A DNA stretch of 64,000 nt from Candidatus Dormiibacterota bacterium (lineage in GTDB: Bacteria; Chloroflexota; Dormibacteria; CF-121). The translations under genes and the position numbers were made by a program. Shown here one piece after another: positions 20,796 through 28,168 of the stretch (within the stretch, counting starts at the first letter, position 1; the number at the start of each line of letters is the position of its first letter). The DNA is taken from assembly GCA_035544955.1 (NCBI GenBank), contig DASZZN010000009.1, positions 124,001-188,000 of the forward strand. The letters are read 5' to 3'. The notes under the pieces are model-generated. The model was given only the letters and a program-made list of their open reading frames with translations. It had not been told where the DNA came from and did not search any database.

Positions 20796-22076
20796 CTAGC
20801 GCGGCATCTTCGCCAGGATCCGGCCGCCGACGGCCAGGCTCGCCAGGCTAAGGATCAGCAGCGCCAGCGGAATCACGGGAACAGCCGGTTGGGTCGGATG
20901 CGGTTGACCGGTTGCCGGAAGAACAATCGGGGCCGCACCCACGGTCACCGTTGCGTGCAACATCACGGTGCTGCCTTCATGATCCGTCACGGTGGCCGTG
21001 ATGGACTTGGATCCGGCTGACGCGTACGTGTGCGTCCCGCTAACGCTAAACGCGCCGCTCGCCGTCTTGGTCACCGTGCCCGGGTAGAGCGCGTTGTCGC
21101 CCCAGCTGATCATCGCGGAAAAGTCGCCGGCGGCGGCCTGCGCGCCTGCTTCATCCGTAAAGCTGCCGAGCACGCTGGTAAACGCGGCGCTGGCGGTCGC
21201 GGTGAGGCTCTTGTTGGCGTCGGCTGTCAGCTTGCCGTCCGAAATGCTTGCATCGAACGTGCGGGTGGAGGTGGCGCCTCCGTCATCCTTGGCGGTCACT
21301 TTGATGAGGTAGCTCGTACCTGCAGGACTGCCCGCATCGTACACGTGCGAAGCACTGACCTCAGCGTCATTAGAACTGCACTCGCAGATATCCGAAGGGG
21401 CTGTCGACTGCACGGTTTGCAACGCCGTACCGTCGCCCCAATCGATCGTCCCGGTGATCGATGTGTCACGAGCCGACGACTCGGAGTTTCTGTCCTCGAA
21501 AAAGTCAACCGCTACCGTGATGCTCTTGCCTTCCACGGCGCTGTAGGTGCCGCGCGTGGAGTTGTCACCATCCCAGGAGAGGGCCGCATCCGCCACGGTG
21601 ACGGCGGCGGTGTTCGTGGCGCTGCCACTAACGTGCGGGGTATCGGCCGTGTCGGTAACCGTGACGTTGATGTGGAATGTGCCTGAGTCCGGGTAGGTGT
21701 GCGCACCCCAAACCGCCCAGGTTCCCTCGGTGTCTGTGCAACGGACGGTCCCCGCACCCGTGACCGTGCCGTCGCCAGACCAATCGATGGTCGCGCTGTA
21801 TCTGGCCTGCGCTACGCCGTCGCACGAGATGCGGGGCGCCGCCCCTATCACAATCGGCGGGTTGCCGCTATCGGTAAACGTCGCGACTTGCTTTGACCCG
21901 GTCGAGTCGCCCTCGAGCACGGTAATGGCCGTGTCGCTGCCTGCGGTAACCGTGATCGCGTCGGCCGCGAATGCCACACCGCTCTGGAGCCCGACGAGCG
22001 CCGAGGCGGTCGCGGCCGCCATTCCAACGTACGCCAATGAGGCGCGAATAGACCGACAGTAACCAGGGAACCCCAT
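20796..22076 (-). CDS. Sortase-anchored surface protein with PKD/Ig-like repeats (LPATG)
   Basis: This 426-residue exported protein has a signal peptide (about 1-38, ending GVAFAADA), then three to four PKD/Ig-like repeats. Each repeat carries a W-G/S-D-G strand (TIDWSGDGTVTGAG, TIDWGDGTALQTV, MISWGDNALYPGTV) and H-x-Y (GAHTYPDSGTF, GTHTYASAGSK). The C-terminus is a cell-wall sorting signal: LPATG at 386-390, a hydrophobic helix and tail AKMPR. The sortase that would attach it is encoded immediately upstream on the same strand. It is probably an adhesion or stalk protein; the ligand is unknown. Confidence 0.88.
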   Translation of the reverse strand: MGFPGYCRSIRASLAYVGMAAATASALVGLQSGVAFAADAITVTAGSDTAITVLEGDSTGSKQVATFTDSGNPPIVIGAAPRISCDGVAQARYSATIDWSGDGTVTGAGTVRCTDTEGTWAVWGAHTYPDSGTFHINVTVTDTADTPHVSGSATNTAAVTVADAALSWDGDNSTRGTYSAVEGKSITVAVDFFEDRNSESSARDTSITGTIDWGDGTALQTVQSTAPSDICECSSNDAEVSASHVYDAGSPAGTSYLIKVTAKDDGGATSTRTFDASISDGKLTADANKSLTATASAAFTSVLGSFTDEAGAQAAAGDFSAMISWGDNALYPGTVTKTASGAFSVSGTHTYASAGSKSITATVTDHEGSTVMLHATVTVGAAPIVLPATGQPHPTQPAVPVIPLALLILSLASLAVGGRILAKMPR

Positions 22077-22286: not shown

Positions 22287-22913
22287 TTAGGCCGGAACCG
22301 CAGTCACGACCCAGCGCTTGGTATCGACGTTGAAGGGCCAGCAGGTCATGATCGTCAAGCGTACGTCGGGGGTAGGGGCGAGGATGCCGACTGCCGTGGG
22401 CGGCACGATCTGATGGCCGGTAACCCGGTAGACCTGCGTGGCGCCACCGACAGTGACCTGGATGATATCGCCAGGCGCCAGGTCATAAAGGTGGCCAAAG
22501 ATATTGCCCTGGATGTCGTCGTGGCCGTAGAGGAACGTATTGCCGCTCCCGAACGTCGCCGAAAACGCGTAGCGCGTCACCGAATAGCCCGGGGCGATCA
22601 GCATGACCCCCTTGGCATCCGTACCCCGGTCGTAGATGGGCGCGTTGCGGATGCCGATCCGAGGGATGGAGATGAGGGCGATTACCGCCGTCGCGGGAGC
22701 AGCCGCCGCGACCGCTGCCGCGGCATTCCGCTGGGGGGCGTCCGACGGTTGGGTCGTGGCCAGCGCGGTTGGTGACGGCGCCGGCGGTGCGATTGCCAGG
22801 ACGGCCCGCGGCGCCGCCACGGGGTGGGCCGGGCGGACCAGCTCGGCCGCCGGGATGCTGGCGAGCAGAACGAGGACGCCGGCAGCGAGCAGGACGGCGG
22901 GTCCTCGCTTCAT
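22287..22913 (-). CDS. Sortase
   Basis: A 208-residue membrane transpeptidase with an N-terminal anchor (about 5-23) and a Pro/Ala linker. The sortase barrel shows GNTFLYGHDD (His131), LTIMTCWPFNVDTKR (Cys191, Arg200) and the strand IPRIGIRNAPIYDRG. These are the His-Cys-Arg triad. The extended TCWPFN..TKRW motif is like class D/E enzymes. Its likely substrate is the LPATG protein 210 bp downstream; the LATTG protein at 55364-56326 is another candidate. The intergenic gap suggests separate or partly coupled expression. Confidence 0.92.
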   Translation of the reverse strand: MKRGPAVLLAAGVLVLLASIPAAELVRPAHPVAAPRAVLAIAPPAPSPTALATTQPSDAPQRNAAAAVAAAAPATAVIALISIPRIGIRNAPIYDRGTDAKGVMLIAPGYSVTRYAFSATFGSGNTFLYGHDDIQGNIFGHLYDLAPGDIIQVTVGGATQVYRVTGHQIVPPTAVGILAPTPDVRLTIMTCWPFNVDTKRWVVTAVPA

Positions 22914-25030: not shown

Positions 25031-25828
25031 GTGGTCGGGCAGGCGGGCACGTTGGGCGTCCTGACTCCACGCCTCAACGCGGCGCAGATGCGGGCCCTGA
25101 TCCGGCTCGGGGTGATCCTGCGCTGGGTGGCGGTCGCCTTCGCTGGGCTGGCTGGATTGCTGGGCCCGCGGGTGCCGAACCTCCTGACCGCGGAGATCCT
25201 GGCGGCCGTGATCTACAACGGCCTCGTGATGGGATCTGCGATGCGCGCCCCCGATGAAGGTCTGCCCCGAATCGCGCTGATCACGACGGTCGTCGATCAG
25301 CTCTTCTGCTTCACCTTCCTCGGCCTCTACAACGTCGCGCCGGACAGCCGCCAGGTGGCGGCGTACGTGCCCGGGATGATCGAGGCGGTCGCGTTCTTCG
25401 GGGTGGCCGGCGCCGTCCTCTCCAGCGGCATTTTCTTGACCGGTGTCGTCGTTGCCCAGGCCGCCGCCACCGTCCTGGGGCGAGGCCCTTTTGACCCGGA
25501 GGGCATTTTCGGTTCTACGATGATCGTGATCCTGATCGGGACCTGTCTCGCTGCGGTCAGCCAGGTGATTGGTAACGCGGCAGGCGATGCGGTCCCGAGT
25601 GAGCGCACAGTCCGCAGTACCGCGGCGCCGCCTCGGCCGGGCCTTTCCGGACAGGAGCAGGATGTGCTGCATATGCTCGCCGAGGGTTGCTCGAACGCGA
25701 TGATCGCCGGCCGGCTCGGGCTGAGTGAGCGAAGGGTCAAGGCCTGCGTTGAACGCCTGCTGACCCAGCTGAAGGCCCGCAACCGCGCCGAGGCGGTGGC
25801 ATCGGCAATCCGGACTGGACTGCTGTGA
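25031..25828 (+). CDS. Membrane-anchored LuxR-type regulator 1
   Basis: This 265-residue protein has about six predicted transmembrane helices (residues ~25-185) followed by a cytoplasmic LuxR/NarL helix-turn-helix (EQDVLHMLAEGCSNAMIAGR, LGLSERRVKACVERLL) and AVASAIRTGLL. It would be a one-component membrane sensor binding DNA directly. The recognition helix has ERRVKACVERL in place of the usual ENTVKxHVxRI. AAGGAGGGAGG precedes the GTG start. It overlaps its paralogue by 4 bp. Confidence 0.82.
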   Translation: MVGQAGTLGVLTPRLNAAQMRALIRLGVILRWVAVAFAGLAGLLGPRVPNLLTAEILAAVIYNGLVMGSAMRAPDEGLPRIALITTVVDQLFCFTFLGLYNVAPDSRQVAAYVPGMIEAVAFFGVAGAVLSSGIFLTGVVVAQAAATVLGRGPFDPEGIFGSTMIVILIGTCLAAVSQVIGNAAGDAVPSERTVRSTAAPPRPGLSGQEQDVLHMLAEGCSNAMIAGRLGLSERRVKACVERLLTQLKARNRAEAVASAIRTGLL

Positions 25829-26649
25829 TCGTCCTGCGGGCGGCCGCGTCCATCGTCACCTTTGCGGAGATCATCCCGCTGCCGACGGCCGAGCAAGTCC
25901 GGCGGAAGCTACACCAAGGCGTGGCGTTGCGCTGGATCTTGATCGCCGTGATCGCGGCGGGCGTGATGCTGACGCCGAACGTGGCCGGGCTCATCCTCGC
26001 CGTCCTGGCGGCCGCCAGCGTCTGGAACGCGACGGTCATGGTGGCGCTGGCGCGGGCGACCGCACGCTGGCAGCGGCGAATCACGCTCGCGGTGGTGATC
26101 GTCGACCAGCTGTTCTGCTTCATGTTCGTGGGCCTCTACGCATCCCACGTTGGCGCCAGCCAGCCGCTCGGCGGTTACTCGATGGGAACGATTGAGGCGA
26201 TCTTCTACTTCGGGGCTATCGGCGCGATTCTGTCGCTGGGGATCTTTGTGGTCTCCGCCCTGGCGGCCCATGGGCTCGGCCTGCCGCTCTTCGGCCATGT
26301 GTTCGACGGCCCCGGCATCGTGAACTCCGTCCTGCTGCTGGGCATGATCGCCGTCTGCCTGATCGCCGCGTGGCGGATCCGGCTTGTGCCCGCCGCCGTG
26401 GAGGGAAGCCACGCCGAAACCGCTGAGGTGGTGTCGTCACCGAATGGCGATCCCGCGATCCGGCTGTCGCGACGCGAGCGCGAGGTGCTACACCTGGTCG
26501 CCGAAGGGTACTCGAACACGATGATCGCCAACCGCCTTCGGATCAGCGAAAACACCGTCAAGGGCTACGTGGAGAACCTCCTGTTCCACCTGAACGCGCG
26601 CAACCGCGCAGAGGCGGTTGCGGCGGCGGCCCGGCTCAACCTGCTCTAA
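25825..26649 (+). CDS. Membrane-anchored LuxR-type regulator 2
   Basis: A 274-residue paralogue of the preceding protein: about six membrane helices, shared VIVDQLFCFMFVGLYA and GTIEAIFYFGAIGAILS segments, then a canonical LuxR domain (LSRREREVLHLVAEGYSNTM, ISENTVKGYVENLLFHL, NARNRAEAV). The start overlaps the first regulator (GTGATC within CTGTGA), so both are made together and could form heterodimers. The signal is unknown. The conserved DQLFCF in the membrane part may contain the sensory site. Confidence 0.85.
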   Translation: MIVLRAAASIVTFAEIIPLPTAEQVRRKLHQGVALRWILIAVIAAGVMLTPNVAGLILAVLAAASVWNATVMVALARATARWQRRITLAVVIVDQLFCFMFVGLYASHVGASQPLGGYSMGTIEAIFYFGAIGAILSLGIFVVSALAAHGLGLPLFGHVFDGPGIVNSVLLLGMIAVCLIAAWRIRLVPAAVEGSHAETAEVVSSPNGDPAIRLSRREREVLHLVAEGYSNTMIANRLRISENTVKGYVENLLFHLNARNRAEAVAAAARLNLL

Positions 26650-26847: not shown

Positions 26848-27378
26848 ATGTTGTTGCTGATCGGATTCGTCTTCAGGATCTTGATCGGGGCGCTGCTGGT
26901 GCTTGCCGGAGCGGGCAAGCTTCAGATGGTTGCCACGGAACGCGAAAAGTGGCTCCGGGCGTACGACATTCTTCCCAACTCCATCGTGCCCGTGGCGGCG
27001 GTGGCTATTCCGTCGGCGGAGCTGCTGGCGGGTGTCGCCCTGATCCTCGGGCTGGGAGGCGAGCTCAGCATTGGGCTCAGTGCGGTTGTCCTGGTGCTGG
27101 TGACGGGCGGAGCCGCGCTCGCGCTGGCTCGAGGCCGGCGCCCGGATTGTGGCTGCTTTGGCCGATGGGCGCGCACACAACTCTCCTGGATGGTGGTCGC
27201 CAGGAACCTCGCGCTCATTGCGCTGCTCGCGGGCATTGGCGCGAGTGGCCTGACCCAGCCGGGAATCGCACCCTGGCCGATAGCAAGTCAATTCGTGGTT
27301 GCGGCCGCCGTTGCAGCGGCCACTGCTTTCTTGCCCCGCCGAGCGAATGCAGCCGGCGGGCAGCCTTCAAGGGGGTGA
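26848..27378 (+). CDS. MauE/DoxX-like membrane redox protein
   Basis: A 176-residue protein with four or five transmembrane helices. The motif DCGCFGRW at about residues 99-106 is the MauE hallmark; MauE is needed with MauD for forming the many disulfides of methylamine dehydrogenase. FRILIGALLVLAGAGKL is the typical first helix. AGGAGG lies 9 nt upstream of the chosen ATG. The gene ends 4 bp before the start of a Tat-exported cysteine-rich protein, a strong hint that it oxidises or matures that product. Confidence 0.8.
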   Translation: MLLLIGFVFRILIGALLVLAGAGKLQMVATEREKWLRAYDILPNSIVPVAAVAIPSAELLAGVALILGLGGELSIGLSAVVLVLVTGGAALALARGRRPDCGCFGRWARTQLSWMVVARNLALIALLAGIGASGLTQPGIAPWPIASQFVVAAAVAAATAFLPRRANAAGGQPSRG

Positions 27379-27382
27379 CCCA

Positions 27383-28168
27383 GTGAGCATGAACGGCTTT
27401 TTGTCACGACGGCGCTTCATCAAGATTGCGGGGGCCGCCGGCCTCGCTGTGGCGGGCTGGGCGGGACAGATTTTTCCGGAGTTTGCGTTGGCGAACTCGG
27501 GCCGATCGGGCGGGGCGCCAAGCCCCAAGGTTCCGGGGGCCGCTGATGTTCCTCCGTGGACCTGGGGCACAGTTACCAGCAAGACCGAGATGCAAGGGGC
27601 GCATCGCGATGCAGCCCTGGCTGTCCATCGCGAGCGCGGTTCGGCCCACGCGGCGGCTGCTGCCGCGGGCTTCCAGCTCGAGGGCACCCACGTGGGAACC
27701 GCGAGGTACACACTTGCCGACGGGCATCAGGTGCTGGCCTCGGCATGGCTGAGCGGTGATCGTGTCCTGGCGTCGTACGACTACGAGACACCGCGGGGCG
27801 ACGGCTACCAGGGCCAGGCGATGATTTACGAGATCTCCTCCGACTTGAAGGGTTCACTGCTCGCGGCCGCGGTGAACGGCAAACTGCTCAAGCGAGGGAG
27901 GTTCGGTGCGTCCGCCCCTGCCACCGAGACGCTCGCGGTTGGCGCGGCGGCGGTCGACGCCGAAGCCGGCTGGTGCTCGATCTGCTGCAACATCGACTTC
28001 GGCTGCATCATGGGGTGCTGCGACTACTGCTTCTGGCCATGTCTCGCGGGTCCGCAAGCCTGTATCGCTTGTGCACTGTGGTGGTGCAGCATGACCTGCC
28101 CACTATCCATTTGCTGCCGGTGCTTCTGCGATTGTGGCAACGCATGGGGATGCAGGTGCTGCGCATAG
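27383..28168 (+). CDS. Tat-exported protein with 20-Cys C-terminal domain
   Basis: This 261-residue protein starts with a twin-arginine signal (LSRRRFIKIAGAAGLAVAGW, RR at 9-10). A central domain (about 75-170) shows GTARYTLADGHQVLASAWLS and GQAMIYEISSDLKGSLLAA. The last 66 residues hold 20 cysteines plus many aromatics (GWCSICCNIDFGCIMGCCDY, CPLSICCRCFCDCGN). The layout (Tat leader, soluble middle, cysteine-rich tail) resembles halocin-C8-like proteins, where the tail is released as a bacteriocin. No specific match can be claimed. GTG at 27383 follows GGGGGT; ATG at 27389 is an alternative. Confidence 0.75.
   Translation: MSMNGFLSRRRFIKIAGAAGLAVAGWAGQIFPEFALANSGRSGGAPSPKVPGAADVPPWTWGTVTSKTEMQGAHRDAALAVHRERGSAHAAAAAAGFQLEGTHVGTARYTLADGHQVLASAWLSGDRVLASYDYETPRGDGYQGQAMIYEISSDLKGSLLAAAVNGKLLKRGRFGASAPATETLAVGAAAVDAEAGWCSICCNIDFGCIMGCCDYCFWPCLAGPQACIACALWWCSMTCPLSICCRCFCDCGNAWGCRCCA

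What the first reader, a model, noticed from the sequence alone, without database searches (positions are those of the whole stretch)
26848..28168. MauE-like redox protein paired with a Tat-exported 20-cysteine protein
The MauE homologue (DCGCFGRW) ends 4 bp before a protein with a twin-arginine signal, a middle domain and 20 Cys in the last 66 residues. MauE takes part in forming multiple disulfides in methylamine dehydrogenase, and Tat export of folded proteins suits this. The tail could be a released disulfide-rich bacteriocin, as in halocin C8-type precursors, or a metal-binding domain.
Basis: partly seen in the sequence, partly recalled or inferred. Interest (0 to 1): 0.62.

Follow-up and report, generated by a model that had tools for sequence, protein, structure and literature searches.

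The report
MauE-paired, Tat-exported disulfide-rich protein
A Chloroflexota bacterium carries a small membrane redox protein next to an exported protein with 20 cysteines packed into its last 66 residues, and the same pairing recurs with unrelated cysteine-rich proteins across the phylum, suggesting a dedicated machine for making heavily disulfide-bonded secreted proteins whose purpose is still unknown.

Summary
MauE (26848-27378) ends 4 bp before a 261-aa Tat-signal protein (27383-28168) with 20 Cys in its last 66 residues. One distant counterpart was found, in another family of the class (L126/L139), again directly behind MauE. The pairing is general: in other genomes of the phylum 28 of 59 regions around strong MauE genes have a Tat-signal Cys-rich ORF within 1.5 kb, always on MauE's strand, against 2 of 30 control regions, both judged spurious. 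Four MauE genes are fused to such a domain, many have a thioredoxin-like gene nearby, and some partners are methylamine-dehydrogenase light-chain relatives. Cys counts are even in 37 of 44 partners (20 of 25 families), which favours disulfides over metal. Bacteriocin use is possible but unproven: no halocin C8 family match, no protease or immunity gene seen. Published precedent: Streptomyces candidate RiPP clusters with mauE and Cys-rich precursors. Boldest reading: charge topology of MauE and its thioredoxin partners, and the fusions, put the redox centres on the cytoplasmic face, so disulfides could be made before Tat export.

The parts
26848..27378 (+). MauE-family membrane redox protein, 176 aa, five predicted TM helices
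   Evidence: PF07291 5.9e-24; hydropathy; model pLDDT 72
27148..27156 (+). CxC redox motif (C101-G-C103) of MauE, between TM3 and TM4
   Evidence: both Cys invariant in 16 MauE; CxC in 58 of 60 strong MauE, 1 of 30 weak DoxX-like hits
27383..28168 (+). 261-aa Tat-signal protein with 20-Cys tail (predicted MauE substrate)
   Evidence: TIGR01409 17.4 bits
27383..27496 (+). twin-arginine signal region (FLSRRRFIK...FALA)
   Evidence: shared with L126 (BLASTP 5e-7)
27545..27967 (+). middle domain (about residues 55-195), no Cys, no family match
   Evidence: a pro- or immunity role is inference
27968..28165 (+). 66-residue tail, 20 Cys, 9 aromatic residues
28220..28249 (.). perfect 10-bp inverted repeat with 10-nt loop after the partner gene, possible transcript end (no T run)
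   Evidence: read; not called by the terminator scan

Best explanation
The two genes form a substrate-plus-maturase pair. The partner is made with a twin-arginine signal and sent out through Tat; MauE, a five-helix membrane protein with a CxC centre, oxidises its cysteines in pairs, giving up to ten disulfides in a compact, hydrophobic 66-residue tail. This is the MauE/MauD/MauA arrangement of methylamine dehydrogenase, reused for other Cys-rich cargo. Shown: the gene pair, the signal motif, TatC in the genome, recurrence of the pair, fusions, even Cys counts. Inferred: that MauE is the oxidant, which side of the membrane it works on, that all Cys pair up, and the use of the product (a secreted antagonistic peptide is the likeliest single use, about 0.35).
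For: 28 of 59 strong-MauE regions (60 places) have a Tat-signal ORF with at least 8 Cys per 70 aa within 1.5 kb; all 32 near candidates lie on MauE's strand (one of them, in L121, is spurious), against 2 of 30 weak DoxX-like control regions, both spurious on inspection. By inspection 37 of 59. Single-chain fusions MauE + RR + Cys domain: L110, L062, L064 and L125, which also holds a thioredoxin domain. Of 82 ORFs scanned in the paired loci 14 match AhpC-TSA. Of 38 partner proteins 5 match the MADH light chain (TIGR02659 best E 8.5e-16; PDB 2bbk 9.5e-16 for L120). Even Cys number in 37 of 44 partners, 20 of 25 families (p 0.002), with within-family differences mostly in steps of two. Counterpart L126/L139. 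TatC present, VKOR and DsbB not found in the own genome.
Against: 22 of 59 strong-MauE regions show no Cys-rich partner even after inspection (some regions are cut by contig ends). Window and L126 tails do not align Cys by Cys. The window has no thioredoxin gene beside MauE, unlike many relatives. The pair is absent from all 14 other genomes of the genus examined, so it is accessory. No biochemistry exists for this pair in what I read.
Confidence: 0.72

Rival explanations
1. Bacteriocin of halocin C8-like design: the tail is cut off and released as a disulfide-rich antimicrobial, and the middle domain acts as immunity. (Compatible with the MauE mechanism; a claim about use.)
For: Same layout as halocin C8-like precursors; L104/L107 show a Tat signal, long middle domain and 12-Cys tail beside MauE and an ABC ATPase; MauE with small Cys peptides, ABC transporter and S26 peptidase on a Streptomyces plasmid, and with ABC plus redoxin on a Priestia plasmid; FtsX permeases in L058 and L118, L045 and L109; mauE in Streptomyces candidate RiPP families. 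Weak middle-domain profile match to the halocin C8 family, E 0.0032, probability 10%.
Against: No TIGR04449 match; no ABC transporter, protease or immunity gene recognised beside the window pair; an ABC signature pattern hit 0 of 28 Tat-type regions, though it missed L104 and L107; no activity data.
Confidence: 0.35
2. Metal-binding or metal-storage domain folded in the cytoplasm and exported by Tat.
For: Tat often carries metalloproteins (general knowledge); very high Cys density with CxC, CC and CxxC spacings.
Against: Even Cys counts and changes by two; 9 aromatic residues in the tail; no metal-protein family hit; presence of a redox membrane partner.
Confidence: 0.1
3. Enzyme small subunit like the methylamine dehydrogenase light chain, with a Trp-derived cofactor.
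For: MADH light-chain relatives occupy the same position in several loci; the window tail has five Trp.
Against: The window protein matches no MADH light-chain model; no heavy chain found, though that search's control was silent.
Confidence: 0.06
4. Structural or cell-wall surface protein stabilised by disulfides; MauE serves any Cys-rich exported protein.
For: Diverse partners without shared sequence (25 families); the L055 and L135 partners look like RlpA-like double-psi-barrel proteins by my own reading of the letters, not by a search.
Against: No surface anchor, repeat or sorting motif seen in the partner.
Confidence: 0.25

Closest known systems
mau cluster: MauE-MauD-MauA (maturation of the methylamine dehydrogenase light chain)
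   Same: MauE-family membrane protein next to a twin-arginine-type, Cys-rich exported protein; thioredoxin-like MauD in many relatives; order mauB-mauE-mauD-mauA in L143
   Different: Window cargo is not a MADH light chain, no heavy chain or amicyanin seen, no adjacent MauD, 20 Cys in 66 residues
Candidate RiPP families with mauE in Streptomyces (decRiPPter, PMC7794033)
   Same: mauE, once with mauD, beside precursors with at least 8 Cys; the authors propose a modifying role (passages read)
   Different: Those are precursors in Streptomyces; here a Tat signal, a long middle domain, Chloroflexota, and MauE-cargo fusions
Halocin C8 family (TIGR04449)
   Same: Tat signal, middle domain, hydrophobic Cys-rich C-terminal tail
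   Different: No family match, no MauE annotated near 3 inspected halocin C8-like genes, 10 Cys in the tail (L136) against 20

Membership tests
MauE (PF07291) | profile match above the curated cut-off | tested here: met
   85.2 bits against 27
MauE (PF07291) | CxC redox motif | tested here: met
   C101-G-C103; both Cys invariant in A3
Tat substrate | twin-arginine signal and Tat translocase in the genome | tested here: met
   TIGR01409 17.4 against 16.7, TatC E 6.7e-60; Pfam TAT_signal below cut-off
Tat substrate | Tat-dependent export | not testable with these tools
   needs experiment
Methylamine dehydrogenase light chain (PF02975/TIGR02659) | profile match | tested here: not met
   window protein unmatched; 5 of 38 proteins of A2 match
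Methylamine dehydrogenase system | heavy chain in the genome | tested here: inconclusive
   no PF06433 hit, but no control genome rang
Halocin C8 (TIGR04449) | match to the halocin C8 domain model | tested here: not met
   no hit at E 1; positive control L136 hits at 4.8e-12
Halocin C8 (TIGR04449) | antimicrobial tail with N-terminal immunity domain | not testable with these tools
   needs assay
RiPP/bacteriocin cluster with MauE | Cys-rich precursor beside mauE | tested here: met
   20 Cys, 4 bp from MauE
RiPP/bacteriocin cluster with MauE | dedicated transporter or leader protease beside the pair | tested here: not met
   flanking genes scanned: two LuxR-type regulators, one unmatched membrane protein; the rest of the window was not scanned for this

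The most novel reading that the evidence does not exclude
MauE and its thioredoxin partner work on the cytoplasmic face: they load disulfides into the Cys-rich cargo before it leaves, and Tat is used because the cargo leaves folded and oxidised. Basis: 19 of 20 thioredoxin-like partners with a membrane helix, including an annotated MauD of Paracoccus, have more K/R after the helix than before it (domain inside), against 1 of 16 ordinary redoxins of the class; the MauE side that carries CxC is richer in K/R in 49 of 59 sequences; and in the fusions, five MauE helices followed by an RR-helix can place the Cys domain outside only if the CxC loop is inside.
Probability: 0.3. Interest if true: 0.85.

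Novelty: new variant of a known kind. Interest (0 to 1): 0.62.

Why it matters
MauE is known from one enzyme and a few Streptomyces candidates; these data make it look like a general module for very disulfide-rich exported proteins in a large, poorly studied phylum, with many unnamed cargo families. It gives a handle for finding such proteins (search next to MauE rather than by sequence). If the cytoplasmic-face reading is right, it would be a disulfide-loading route coupled to Tat, useful for understanding and for producing disulfide-rich proteins.

Tried and rejected
Direct homology searches for the 261-aa protein failed: 400 phylum genomes gave three weak hits (E about 1e-4) inside or across ORFs that by my reading look like a thioesterase, a MaoC-like protein and RecF, rejected as chance; genome contigs none; plasmids none; PDB none. 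Synteny through MauE was what worked.

AlphaFold of the partner with its one homologue: mean pLDDT 34.7, useless, so no disulfide topology. MauE model pLDDT 72, no PDB fold match at E 0.001. ABC-transporter enrichment: a strict pattern gave 0 of 28, 4 of 31 and 1 of 30 regions and missed two ABC genes that Pfam finds, so inconclusive. Rows dropped before counts: 3 of 63 MauE matches outside the window with E up to 1.3e-10 (contig end, a stop inside, partial); of 67 weaker matches, 30 were used as control. The looser Cys scan (37 of 59) rests on my inspection; the same scan of the controls gave only ORFs I judged spurious. For the parity test I set signal positions by hand in 12 of 44 sequences between (32 of 41 even; 37 of 44 even). 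The MauD-like set was hand-picked from loci in hand (21 ORFs, one without a helix; start codon taken nearest the helix; L101:5462 looks more like a lipoprotein and four of the ORFs have no CxxC); of the 30 control redoxins 13 had no helix and 1 a frame problem. Promoter and terminator scan: nothing above chance.

Full report
What is there. The window carries MauE (26848-27378 +, 176 aa, PF07291 5.9e-24) and, 4 bp behind, a 261-aa protein (27383-28168 +) with a twin-arginine signal (TIGR01409 above cut-off), a Cys-free middle domain of about 140 residues, and 20 Cys in the last 66 residues. The own genome (3.67 Mb, 52 contigs) holds one copy of each, has TatC, and gave no hit for VKOR or DsbB and only a sub-threshold DsbA-like match. 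Upstream lie two tandem LuxR-type regulators with membrane N-termini, downstream a convergent membrane protein without family match and then an ORF that reads like ispE (by eye). No protease, transporter or immunity gene was recognised beside the pair.

Relatives. Sequence searches with the Cys protein found nothing credible. Searching MauE in 201 phylum genomes gave 78 with a match, and reading the neighbourhoods gave the answer. In 59 regions around 60 strong MauE genes, 28 have a Tat-signal ORF with at least 8 Cys per 70 residues within 1.5 kb, 32 candidates in all, every one on MauE's strand (one, in L121, spurious but beside a real one); 30 control regions around weak DoxX-like hits gave 2, both spurious by inspection (Fisher p 9.6e-5 on the automatic counts). 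In the same regions beyond 1.5 kb the script found 8 candidates in 372 kb against 32 in 198 kb near MauE. A looser scan with inspection raises the number to 37 of 59. The strong set has CxC in 58 of 60, the weak set in 1 of 30. Regions are not independent: by my count, the 28 regions come from 18 of 37 genomes, and one genome (G116) supplied several.

In the window's own class (110 genomes) 11 genomes have 15 MauE places at E 1e-8; by inspection 12 of 15 have a Cys-rich partner or fused domain. One, L126, is the counterpart of the window pair: MauE 40% identical, then a 259-aa Tat protein with a middle domain and a 12-Cys tail, related mainly through the signal region (BLASTP 5e-7; 26% overall). 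L126 lies inside L139, a contig named Chloroflexi bacterium 13_1_40CM_65_17, which places the window in Chloroflexota. A profile of the two proteins finds no third member among 110 class genomes beyond one E 0.006 hit with stops. None of 14 other genomes of the genus has MauE at that threshold or the partner; several of those genomes are incomplete.

How it most likely works. Four natural fusions put MauE and an RR-preceded Cys domain in one chain (L110, L062, L064; L125), and L125 adds a thioredoxin domain between them. Thioredoxin-like genes sit in many loci (14 of 82 scanned ORFs match AhpC-TSA; one matches the MauD model at 1.3e-4, below its cut-off). Some partners are MADH light-chain relatives (5 of 38; PDB 2bbk 9.5e-16), and the Paracoccus plasmid record shows the classical order mauB, mauE, mauD, mauA with a twin-arginine-like signal on MauA. 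The window pair is therefore best read as MauE with a disulfide-rich exported substrate. A test that separates disulfides from metal binding is parity: 37 of 44 Tat-type partners have an even number of Cys after the signal, 20 of 25 sequence families (p 0.002), and members of a family mostly differ by even numbers (before hand correction of signal positions 32 of 41). The family count is the safer one; families were formed by BLASTP at 1e-4. Five families are odd or mostly odd, and those speak against complete pairing in every partner.

Side of the membrane. MauE has five predicted helices with CxC between the third and fourth. K and R are more frequent on the CxC side (49 of 59). That side also has the longer loops; per residue the means give about 0.115 in loops 1 and 3 and 0.08 in loop 4. 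Of 20 thioredoxin-like partners with an N-terminal helix, 19 have more K/R behind it than before it and none the reverse; of 16 redoxins with a helix taken from the class without regard to MauE, 1 has more behind and 10 more before. Fusions need the MauE C-terminus inside if the Cys domain ends outside. All three point to the cytoplasmic face, which would mean disulfides are made before Tat export. This is prediction from charge and helix counts only; with four helices in MauE the conclusion would flip.

What the product is for is open. Small Cys peptides beside MauE with ABC transporters on Priestia and Streptomyces plasmids, ABC or FtsX genes in a few Chloroflexota loci, and the published Streptomyces candidate RiPPs (PMC7794033, passages read) favour an antagonistic peptide; the diversity of cargo, including enzyme subunits, means that MauE itself does not tell the function. 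Halocin C8 membership was tested and not met.

Literature. Ten searches of the open library were run. MauE with MauD and disulfide returned one paper, PMC7794033; MauE with Tat signal and disulfide none. Of the 96 papers with MauE and cysteine only 25 were listed. I read passages of PMC7794033, PMC12893001, PMC13252029 and PMC5449189 and the outline of PMC13252029, no paper in full. PMC5449189 describes proteins that use Sec and Tat in one chain; MauE does not occur in it. [quoted passage not shown] any further detail about them is recalled.

Noticed in passing
window 20796-22076 (-) and 22287-22913 (-): Sortase gene (PF04203 1.2e-22) near a PKD-repeat protein ending in an LPATG-like motif, hydrophobic stretch and basic tail: a likely sortase-substrate pair.
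   Followed up: no
window 25031-25828 and 25825-26649 (+): Two overlapping tandem paralogues, each with a membrane N-terminal part and a LuxR-type HTH but no receiver domain found, directly upstream of MauE.
   Followed up: partly
L120 4857-6671 and 6678-7184 (-); similar L053, L117, L116: MADH light-chain-like Tat protein directly beside a protein that fuses an N-terminal part with a weak WD40 match to MauE: possibly an amine dehydrogenase-like enzyme with propeller subunit and maturase in one chain.
   Followed up: partly
L125 1-1920 (-): Single ORF with MauE, thioredoxin-like part (GCGPC), RR-helix and Cys-rich domain.
   Followed up: partly
L141 2230-6100; L142 4638-8534: Plasmid clusters with a small Cys-containing peptide, MauE, thioredoxin-like protein and ABC transporter (Priestia; Streptomyces with S26 peptidase), likely disulfide peptide clusters.
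   Followed up: partly
L036 and L096 (G116): One genome with 12 MauE matches, several beside Cys-rich Tat proteins of one 16-Cys family.
   Followed up: partly
L058 6095-6412, L118 4094-4351: Cys-rich peptides without Tat signal but with a leader-like N-terminus beside MauE, a thioredoxin-like-sized ORF and a large FtsX permease.
   Followed up: partly
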